Assembly (NCBI GenBank): GCA_000830175.1
Contig: JQIS01000001.1
Coordinates: 283,482-347,481, forward strand
DNA length: 64,000 nt
Direction of reading: 5' to 3'
Origin: Sulfurovum sp. FS08-3
GTDB lineage: Bacteria; Campylobacterota; Campylobacteria; Campylobacterales; Sulfurovaceae
A model generated the notes under the pieces. That model searched no databases. It had not been told where the DNA came from and saw only the letters and a list, made by a program, of their open reading frames with translations. Made by a program: the position numbers and the translations under genes. Below, in pieces: positions 46,629 through 57,936 of this stretch; position 1 is the first letter of the stretch; each line of letters begins with the position of its first letter.

Positions 46629-46640
46629 CGCACTTCTTCC

Positions 46641-46677
46641 TTCTCGTTCCACCTCTCCTAAGAGTGTGAAACGAGAA
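46641..46677. repeat. Intergenic hairpin repeat, copy A
   Basis: TTCTCGTTCCAC...GTGTGAAACGAGAA, with inner CTCT-CCTA-AGAG. Stem of eight pairs, a C-A mismatch, three pairs, a bulged T and four pairs. It lies 13 bases after the outer membrane gene and may also end its transcript. Related to copies at 47930 and 49404. Confidence 0.75.
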
Positions 46678-46691
46678 AAAGCATCCAACCC

Positions 46692-55344: not shown

Positions 55345-55453
55345 CAAAATCATTTCACAACAAAGATAGCATCATAGAGAAAAACATCACTTATGGATAC
55401 GATTGGTAACAGGAGGAGCTAACCGATTAGCCTGTTTACTAAATTTAAAAAAT

Positions 55454-56134
55454 ATGGAAAATGAAAAAGAGTTTCCTTTAGATGCATTATTTTGTGATAA
55501 TATTAAAGGACAAGAACCAAAACTTGAAGTTGTTAAAATACCTTCAGTAGATACAGAGCAAATCTTAGGAGAACCAATGAAAAAACCAGTTTTGAATATA
55601 AAAGACCTTACACCAGAAGTTAAACAATATATGATGTTTCTTGCTTCAGTAGTTGCTTTGACTTCCACTCCTGCCCAAGCAGATGTTGGAAAATTTGATC
55701 ATGCTGGAGTGATGAAAAAATGTGACAAAAATGGAGATAGTAAAATACAAAAAGGTTTTGAAAAAACTTGTTATTTAGGATTTAGAAAAGAATATACTGA
55801 TAGTCTTATGACTCCTTTTGAAATACAATTAAGAGATGGAGCTAAGAACAATCCAAATCATATTGATAATTTGACACTAGAACAACTTGAAGAGAGAATC
55901 AAAATAATTGAAGAAGAAAAAAGACAAAGAGATGCTAATATAACTAAACAAAATGAAAATATAGCTAAACAAAATGAAAATATAGCTAAACAAAATGAAA
56001 ATATAGCTAGACTTGATGCAGAAGGAAACAGACTTGATGCAGAAGGAAACAGACTTGATGCAAATATTAATTTAGCAAGAAAATTAAATAAAAAATATAG
56101 TGGTGGGCTTCCAACTTATTATAAAAAAGACTAA
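55454..56134 (+). CDS. Foreign-looking protein with EF-hand-like loop and repeated coiled-coil units
   Basis: 226 residues from the ATG at 55454. A longer frame from a TTG at 55403 would include a CGA codon and no start signal. From 55454 on all nine Arg codons are AGA, unlike the host. There is a hydrophobic stretch YMMFLASVVALTSTPAQADV (about 66-85) that could be a signal or anchor after a long N-tail, then DKNGDSKIQKGF, an EF-hand-like loop. The end has three copies of AKQNENI-type and two of RLDAEGN-type units. No in-frame TGA. Likely same donor as the next ORF; family unknown. Confidence 0.6.
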   Translation: MENEKEFPLDALFCDNIKGQEPKLEVVKIPSVDTEQILGEPMKKPVLNIKDLTPEVKQYMMFLASVVALTSTPAQADVGKFDHAGVMKKCDKNGDSKIQKGFEKTCYLGFRKEYTDSLMTPFEIQLRDGAKNNPNHIDNLTLEQLEERIKIIEEEKRQRDANITKQNENIAKQNENIAKQNENIARLDAEGNRLDAEGNRLDANINLARKLNKKYSGGLPTYYKKD

Positions 56135-56161
56135 TTTTTGCAAAATATTTTAATATATGAT

Positions 56162-56193
56162 AAAGTATTATAAATTTTTATTTATAATACTTT
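56162..56193. terminator. Perfect 14-bp AT hairpin with U-tract between the two foreign ORFs
   Basis: AAAGTATTATAAAT pairs exactly with ATTTATAATACTTT around a TTTT loop, followed by TTT. It is a terminator-like structure for the first ORF, ending three bases before the ATG of the second. No host terminator in the window is this AT-rich. Confidence 0.6.
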
Positions 56194-56196
56194 TTT

Positions 56197-57828
56197 ATGC
56201 TTGAAAGTAACTCAACTAAACCTTTAGAAACACAAATAAATCTTTCTCCTACAGAAAAAGAGGCTTTAAAGGTGGAAAAAACTCAAAAAGATAAGCAAAA
56301 TTTAGAACAATGAACTCAGTGAGACAAAGACAAAAAAGAGCAGTTAGGTGCAATTGGATGGATGGATAATTTGGAAGAAACTACTGATATTTGAGATATT
56401 CCAAAAGATTTAGCAAAAAGAATTCAAATTTTTGCCAAAAATCATCCTCAAGATTTCAAAAAATTTCAAAAAGTGATAGGGGATATTTCTGAAATAATGG
56501 ATGCTCAATTGTTTAAAGATACTTTTTTGATAGCAGAAAAAGATGTAAAAATAGAAAAAATAACAGAATTACAAAATGAAAATGAAAAATTAAAAGAGAT
56601 AGGAAATAAAAATCAAAAAATAGAAAATACAAATCAAAAAATAGAAAATACAAAAAAAGAAAAAAACAATACAAGAAAAGAAAAAAACAATACAAAAGAA
56701 GAAAAAAACAATACAAAAGAAGAAATAGAAGAAAAGGAGTTTAATACTCTTTATAAAAATTATAAAAATGTAGCAAATATTTTGAGTTGAAATGCAAATG
56801 CAGGGGAGTTTTTGAGATTGATATCTCAAATAGATAAAAATGGATGAAAGTTAAATCCAGAAAATGCAATAAAATTAGATAAAGCAATTGACTCTATTAA
56901 AAATCCAAAAAATTTAAAACAAATTGCAAAAGAGTTAAAAGCAGAGTCTCCTCAAAAATATCAAACTTTTAGAAAAGCAGTGAGTTTTGACCCACAAATA
57001 GCAATGATGCTAGATAGTTTTGAGGCAAAAAGTACTGGAGTGCCTTGAAGGGCTATTGTGGATATCAATGCTGGAGTGAGTGGGGAAAAGTGAGATGTGG
57101 ATGGTGATAATGTGAGTTTTGATAAAGATGGTGCTACAATTAATACAAATAAAGGTGAGACTACTATTGCTTTGAATGGGAGTGATTACAAAATGAGCTC
57201 AAAACCTTGAGAAGCCAATGAAAATCTGGAAAAAGCTAAAAAGGTGCAAGAGGAGAATAATAAAAAAATAGAACCTTTAGAAAAAAGTATTTTTGGATTA
57301 AAAGGTTTGATTGATTTTGTGAGACAAAATTTGACTAAATTTGAAGAGATAAAAAAGAGTTTGAGTAATATTTGAGATAAATTTTATGATAATTTTTCAA
57401 ATGAAGAGAAGACAAAAGTGCAAAGTATTGTAGCAAATTCTAGTAGTGCAGAGGATTTGATAGCCAAAATCACTGCTTTTAAAACTGAATTTGAAGAAGA
57501 TAAAAAGAAACTAGAAGATAAAGCTAAAAAAGATATAGAAGAGATAGTGGAACAAAATGCACAAGAGGTGAGTGAAAAAAGAGAAAAACAAAAAGAGATT
57601 TTGCAGTTTTTGAAAAAAATAGGTTTTGATTTATTGCCAAAAGATGCAACTGATTATGTAATTGCTAGAATCAAAAATGGTGCTATTCCAAATGTTTTGG
57701 GTTTGGAGAAGGGAAATATAGATTTAGCAAAAGGACATTTTGGGGAGAGTTTGCTAGATAAAGATGGAATTGCATGGAAACAAAATTTGGTGAATTTTAT
57801 GAATGTGGTTTTGTATAATTGGAGGTAA
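56197..57828 (+). CDS. Recoded ORF: TGA read as an amino acid, most likely glycine (genetic code 25)
   Basis: 544 codons in one frame, ATG at 56197 to TAA at 57826-57828. Nine TGA codons fall in frame: 56311, 56320, 56392, 56788, 56845, 57046, 57091, 57208 and 57373. No TAA or TAG interrupts it. With TGA as Gly the contexts read P-G, K-G-D, I-G-D, S-G-N, giving 31 Gly (about 6 percent); as Trp they would give 12 Trp (2 percent), odd for a Lys/Glu/Asn-rich protein. All nine Arg codons are AGA or AGG. The product is helical, with NNTKEEK-type repeats and a DKNG loop. In the host it cannot be translated whole. Function unknown. Confidence 0.85.
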
Positions 57829-57829
57829 G

Positions 57830-57936
57830 ACCCCCCTTCAGATACCTACGGCACCTAATAGTTGAAAGTGTGCTGCTATGTTCCCATCCTGACACAGTCC
57901 TTCCAAATACCATCGCATAGGTCTAAAAGGAGGCAC
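57830..57936 (-). ncRNA. ffs: Signal recognition particle RNA (4.5S, small type)
   Basis: On the minus strand the conserved core reads GTCAGG-ATG-GGAA-CAT-AGCAGC: the GGAA tetraloop (57881-57884), a three-pair stem and the asymmetric CAGG/AGCAGC loop that bind Ffh. GTGT/ACAC extends the helix. The outer ends CCTCCTTTTAGACC and GGTATCTGAAGGGGGG pair, so the RNA is complete and of the ~105-base small type without Alu domain. Its 3' end meets the stop codon of the recoded ORF within one or two bases, so the foreign segment starts right where the RNA gene ends. TAGCAATACT upstream may be its -10 region. Confidence 0.88.

What the first reader, a model, noticed from the sequence alone, without database searches (positions are those of the whole stretch)
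56197..57828. A gene written in genetic code 25 (UGA = Gly) inside a standard-code genome
One 544-codon frame holds nine in-frame TGA codons and no TAA or TAG before its end, although the DNA is very AT-rich and random stops would be frequent. Nine TGA positions are all in the same frame as the ATG and the TAA. Contexts (P-G, K-G-D, I-G-D twice, Q-G-D, S-G-N) and residue totals (31 Gly, 3 Trp) favour Gly over Trp. Arg is only AGA/AGG, in line with the loss or rarity of CGN codons in Absconditabacteria/Gracilibacteria. Host genes nearby, such as the RDD gene (58567) and the NFACT gene (7132), end in TGA, so the host reads it as stop. No tRNA with a UCA anticodon is in the window. This is transfer from a recoded bacterium, a recoded mobile element, or an assembly join.
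Basis: partly seen in the sequence, partly recalled or inferred. Interest (0 to 1): 0.95.

Follow-up and report, generated by a model that had tools for sequence, protein, structure and literature searches.

The report
Recoded gene fragment in Sulfurovum-like chromosome
A 2.4-kb piece of DNA written in a genetic code where UGA means glycine sits in the genome of an ordinary-code sulfur bacterium that cannot translate it; two sister genomes carry matching pieces, so it looks like real but dead-on-arrival gene transfer across a genetic-code boundary, with an assembly error still possible.

Summary
In detail: window 56197-57828 is one frame with nine TGA and no TAA/TAG, where about 27 of the latter are expected. 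TGA fits Gly far better than Trp, and no CGN codon occurs. A second AT-rich foreign ORF lies upstream (55454-56134). The host is a Sulfurovum-like Campylobacterotum with release factor 2, so TGA is stop there.

The frame is a truncated gene fused to host DNA. Its last codons and TAA belong to the SRP-RNA terminator. The left edge abuts the end of a host insertion sequence present in over 30 copies.

Two congeners also carry recoded DNA. G004 has the same recoded|SRP junction, at the host's own divergence, followed by another TGA-rich frame. G003 has the same gene family beside purN, including the missing continuation, with TGA opposite GGA. G000 and G003 differ as coding sequence under code 25. 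Two other congeners lack inserts at both sites.

Best reading: chromosomal fragments of code-25 (Gracilibacteria/Absconditabacteria-type) DNA, unreadable in the host. A MAG assembly chimera remains the main rival. No Patescibacteria relative was found, so the donor is inferred from the code.

The parts
55374..55437 (+). Right end (last about 62 bp) of a multicopy host insertion sequence, inverted repeat GGAGGAGCTAACCGATTAGCCTGT. It is joined on its left to unrelated host DNA without the IS interior or left end, so the join at 55373/55374 is unsafe.
   Evidence: 47 matches in G000, 33 of them near full length, many at contig ends; joins lacking the IS interior and palindromic joins elsewhere in the MAG
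55438..57816 (+). Foreign, code-25-type insert (about 2.4 kb)
   Evidence: GC 0.25-0.33 in 1-kb windows, no CGN codons, TGA in frame; joined to the host SRP RNA terminator, a junction shared with G004
55454..56134 (+). Foreign ORF1, 226 aa, hydrophobic export-like stretch (MMFLASVVALTSTPAQA), coiled repeats at the C-terminus; no TGA in frame; no family
   Evidence: codon usage 9 AGA / 0 CGN, GC3 0.11; of 175 family genomes only G000 has it, apart from a weak 61-residue hit in G029
56197..57816 (+). Recoded gene fragment with nine TGA = Gly (P0001), 3' truncated; mostly helical/coiled-coil prediction
57751..57816 (+). 22 codons (LLDKDGIAWKQNLVNFMNVVLY) shared with G004:C85 and G003:C56; the G003 copy goes on for about 76 more recoded codons
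57817..57828 (+). Host-derived end of the frame, including the TAA stop (SRP RNA terminator stem)
   Evidence: alignment with G001, G002 and G004
57832..57929 (-). Host small SRP RNA gene, RF00169
   Evidence: 58.7 bits; homologues in many relatives

Best explanation
A roughly 2.4-kb chromosomal fragment from a bacterium (or its mobile element) that uses genetic code 25 (UGA = Gly, the Gracilibacteria/Absconditabacteria code) became joined to a Sulfurovum-like chromosome at the terminator of the SRP RNA gene, before the split of G000 and G004. A host insertion sequence now marks its other edge. The captured gene was cut off at the junction. The host has RF2 and no UCA tRNA was found, so translation would stop at the first TGA (codon 39). 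The DNA is therefore an unexpressed relic that drifts. The same donor gene family appears in the genus at a second place, beside purN in G003. Shown: the recoded reading, the foreign codon usage, the shared junction in two species, the related recoded piece in a third, and empty sites in others. Inferred: the donor lineage, the route (natural transformation after contact with or lysis of an episymbiont is my guess) and the lack of function.
For: Nine TGA with 0 TAA/TAG in 543 codons, 0 CGN. TGA = Gly preferred over Trp by about 13 log units, and TGA opposite GGA in a homologue. The recoded|SRP junction is shared with G004: 83 bp at 96%, host flank 94-96%, and G004 continues into more TGA-rich open frame. 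G003 carries the homologous gene with its continuation next to purN. G000/G003 differences are mostly synonymous under code 25 (6 synonymous, 3 nonsynonymous codons; none of 20,000 random sets as conservative), so they diverged as code-25 coding sequence. Sites without recoded DNA: SRP in G001 and G002, purN in G000, G001 and G002. Host RF2. No other recoded segment in about 2.2 Mb of the MAG, so it is not a bin full of contaminant contigs. A host IS end abuts the insert with an ordinary AT-rich target.
Against: No reads or coverage were available. All three carriers are draft MAGs, two of the three recoded pieces are at contig ends, and the left join in the window is at an IS end in an assembly with many false-looking IS joins. 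G003's junction lies at a short dispersed repeat. The part shared between G000 and G004 is only 83 bp; upstream of it the two differ. No Patescibacteria homologue was found, so the donor is not named.
Confidence: 0.68

Rival explanations
1. Assembly chimera: recoded contigs from a co-occurring Gracilibacteria-type organism were fused to host contigs in the MAGs, at an IS end, a terminator hairpin and a short repeat.
For: Left junction at a misjoined IS end. Recoded pieces at contig ends in G003 and G004. Recoded contamination is documented in other assemblies (PMC8629427). Related sulfide-spring biofilms contain Gracilibacteria and Absconditabacteria together with Sulfurovum (PMC10811913).
Against: Two species with their own SNPs share the same junction at host-like divergence. 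The insert is bounded by host sequence on both sides within one 428-kb contig, and no other recoded DNA is in the bin.
Confidence: 0.25
2. The reverse transfer: a code-25 bacterium acquired the host's SRP RNA region, and assemblers crossed from its genome into the host genome through that shared stretch.
For: It would also give the same junction in two MAGs.
Against: It needs an extra transfer plus an assembly error in both MAGs. G004 and G000 run from the junction through SRP RNA and RDD into further host genes at uniform divergence.
Confidence: 0.04
3. TGA is read as Trp (code 4, Mollicutes or insect-symbiont type) in a donor of that kind.
For: AT-rich DNA with AGA-only Arg also fits Mollicutes.
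Against: It would need 21 Trp in 688 codons (6 expected) and only 23 Gly (36 expected), 13 log units worse; TGA stands opposite GGA.
Confidence: 0.02
4. An ordinary host pseudogene that accumulated nine TGA stops.
For: The host reads TGA as stop.
Against: Zero TAA/TAG and no frameshift alongside nine TGA; no homologue in 175 family genomes other than the three insert carriers; foreign codon usage.
Confidence: 0.01

Closest known systems
Code-25 genomes of Gracilibacteria (BD1-5/GN02) and Absconditabacteria (SR1)
   Same: UGA used as Gly, about 29% GC, AT-rich codons, CGN codons rare (PMC6851277, PMC8629427)
   Different: Here it is an isolated 2.4-kb fragment inside a standard-code chromosome with RF2 and without a detected UCA tRNA
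Phages that interact with both code-25 and code-11 bacteria (PMC10746230)
   Same: DNA exchange across the code-25/code-11 boundary
   Different: Those phages avoid in-frame TGA and so work in both codes. This DNA keeps TGA and cannot be expressed, and no phage gene was found
Recoded contamination in genome assemblies (Shulgina and Eddy, PMC8629427)
   Same: Recoded DNA in an assembly of an ordinary-code organism
   Different: There the recoding was attributed to contaminant contigs. Here it is joined within a 428-kb host contig, with a junction shared by a sister species

Membership tests
Code-25 protein-coding DNA | Long frame open except for in-frame TGA | tested here: met
   543 codons, 9 TGA, 0 TAA/TAG
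Code-25 protein-coding DNA | TGA at positions held by Gly in homologues | tested here: met
   One informative column: G000 and G004 GGA, G003 TGA; a second G003 TGA stands opposite Asp. Composition supports Gly. Thin, because only one homologue differs
Code-25 protein-coding DNA | Closest relatives in Gracilibacteria or Absconditabacteria | tested here: inconclusive
   Pattern scans of GTDB contigs found only G003's own contig; whole Patescibacteria genomes could not be reached for a profile search
Code-25 protein-coding DNA | Donor genome has tRNA-Gly(UCA) and lacks RF2 | not testable with these tools
   Donor genome not found. The host has RF2 and no UCA tRNA was seen
Horizontal transfer into the host chromosome | Foreign segment flanked by host DNA on both sides | tested here: met
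   SRP RNA on the right and a host IS end on the left; the join beyond the IS end is unsafe
Horizontal transfer into the host chromosome | Junction reproduced in an independent genome | tested here: met
   Recoded|SRP junction in G004
Horizontal transfer into the host chromosome | Reads spanning both junctions at host depth | not testable with these tools
   No reads available
Recoded prophage, plasmid or integrative element | Integrase/phage genes or flanking attachment repeats | tested here: not met
   No such family in the insert; no flanking direct repeat beyond chance; no phage, plasmid or IMG/VR relative

The most novel reading that the evidence does not exclude
Sulfurovum-like bacteria repeatedly take up and keep chromosomal DNA of a code-25 episymbiont or predator. 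The same gene family was captured at two loci in three species, giving a fossil record of a parasite-host pairing and of gene flow that the genetic-code change makes unreadable.
Probability: 0.3. Interest if true: 0.75.

Novelty: new variant of a known kind. Interest (0 to 1): 0.55.

Why it matters
If real, this is chromosomal gene flow from a UGA=Gly bacterium into a standard-code bacterium. The code change does not block the DNA but kills the protein, which is a natural test of the genetic-code firewall. Such relics could also point to the hosts of uncultured Patescibacteria. If artefactual, it is a clear warning that a MAG contig can fuse recoded and ordinary DNA while the genome is scored as nearly free of contamination (0.09%).

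Tried and rejected
Relatives: two scans of GTDB contigs (only G003's own contig was found), five of IMG/VR, tblastn in phages and plasmids, Pfam, PHROGs, NCBIfam and PDB sequences, and Foldseek in PDB and BFVD (nothing below E 0.001) gave no family. A peptidoglycan-binding-like motif that I saw by eye in the G003 and G004 pieces was not supported by Pfam, and their mutual alignment is weak (20 of 1000 shuffles as good), so I dropped it. Contig C23, which first looked recoded, is host DNA. The AlphaFold placement of 7 of 9 TGA outside helices (29% background) fits Gly but is circular, because the model was made with Gly. The 98-aa G003 model is low confidence. The first version of the 66-nt codon comparison was off by one base and was redone.

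Full report
Observation. The frame 56197-57828 is exactly as described: ATG, nine in-frame TGA, no TAA/TAG, then TAA. Resampling the sequence with the same nearest-neighbour composition gives a mean of 27 TAA/TAG in frame (minimum 13 in 2000 resamples), and the real alternative frames hold 40 and 34. Codon usage is foreign: 0 CGN among 9 Arg codons, and GC3 0.19 against 0.40 in host genes. The upstream ORF 55454-56134 has the same signature (9 AGA, 0 CGN, GC3 0.11) but no TGA.

Host. The window belongs to a 2.54-Mb, 68-contig MAG. Its congener G003 is titled Sulfurovum sp. SulCav_AS07-7, so the host is a Sulfurovum-like Campylobacterotum; the record name of G000 itself was not available. The host has prfB/RF2 at 509 bits, and 7 of 52 window ORFs end in TGA. 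No UCA-anticodon tRNA was found in about 2 Mb. About 2.2 Mb of the MAG was surveyed for further recoded frames. Only the window insert combines many TGA, low GC3 and no CGN.

Meaning of TGA. Over 688 recoded codons from three genomes, reading TGA as Gly gives 41 Gly and 3 Trp (36 and 6 expected from host proteins). Reading it as Trp gives 23 Gly and 21 Trp, 13 log units worse. In one homologous column G000 and G004 have GGA where G003 has TGA; a neighbouring G003 TGA stands opposite Asp.

Right boundary. The insert meets the 3' terminator hairpin of the SRP RNA gene (RF00169, 57832-57929 minus). Congener G004 has the same junction: 83 bp at 96% identity, with host DNA beyond at 94-96%. G004 then runs into a different TGA-rich open frame up to its contig end. 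G001 and G002 have the SRP RNA with unrelated DNA on that side. G003 carries a homologue of the last 22 recoded codons next to purN. There the gene continues for about 76 further codons (LLDKGGVAWKQNLVNFMNIVLYGEVSPKNS...), so the window gene is truncated and its last codons and TAA are host DNA. The purN flank in G000, G001 and G002 has no such insert. In searches of 175 family genomes and 397 class genomes only these three carried the family.

Mode of divergence. Between G000 and G003, 14 of 66 nt differ, giving 6 synonymous and 3 nonsynonymous codons under code 25. None of 20,000 random substitution sets was as conservative. They therefore diverged as coding sequence, presumably in donors before transfer, which suggests two capture events or two paralogues. 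The two G000-G004 differences in the same stretch both change the amino acid, as expected of dead DNA, but two changes are too few to prove it.

Left boundary. 55374-55437 is the right end of an insertion sequence with 47 matches in the genome (33 near full length), often at contig ends. Several internal copies are joined as palindromes or lack the IS interior, and most of the joined copies inspected have flanks that do not match as a target duplication. In G003 and G004 the epimerase gene is followed by what I read as a uracil-DNA glycosylase gene, not by this sequence. The epimerase adjacency is therefore unsafe. The IS|recoded junction looks like other IS edges in this genome and supports a host location.

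Function. Neither ORF has a recognisable family. The long fragment is predicted mostly helical/coiled-coil. In the host translation would stop at codon 39, so I take it to be unexpressed. The donor role, perhaps a secreted or surface protein judging from ORF1's hydrophobic export-like stretch, is a guess.

Age. If the whole fragment had been present since the G000/G004 split (about 6% host divergence, so roughly 50 substitutions in this lineage), the chance of no TAA/TAG arising is about 0.17. That is compatible with drift and does not demand selection, but it ignores indels and would fit a later arrival better.

Verdict. The best explanation is an integrated, untranslatable fragment of code-25 DNA, with a second related piece in a sister species. 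The chief rival is assembly chimerism, which is documented for recoded contigs in other assemblies (PMC8629427). It is weakened, not excluded, by the shared junction. Searches of the held library found no report of code-25 chromosomal DNA inside a standard-code chromosome. The nearest precedent concerns phages compatible with both codes (PMC10746230).

Noticed in passing
window 55374-55437 and 46 other matches in G000; also G003: A multicopy insertion sequence (left end ACAGGCTA(G/A)TCGGTTAGCTCCTCC..., ORF start MEPVN-like, right end GGAGGAGCTAACCGATTAGCCTGT) breaks the assembly; many copies are at contig ends and several internal joins look false (palindromes, missing interior).
   Followed up: partly
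G000:C16:53962-54086, C16:22006-22147, C62:16233-16365, C35, C53: Apparent false scaffold joins at IS ends, a caution for gene order anywhere in this MAG.
   Followed up: partly
window 46640-46680 and L087 4604-4644: A dispersed palindromic repeat of about 40 bp (TTCTCRTTCCACCTCTCC...GAAACGAGA-like) with several copies in G000 and G003; the G003 recoded|host junction lies at one copy.
   Followed up: partly
G003 genome: The SRP RNA-RDD region gave no match in G003, as if the contig holding it had been lost from the bin.
   Followed up: no
L022 16425-16580 (G004:C85 contig end): A second recoded open frame (4 TGA in 52 codons, ends in TAA) joined upstream of the shared 83 bp; different from the window insert.
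   Followed up: partly
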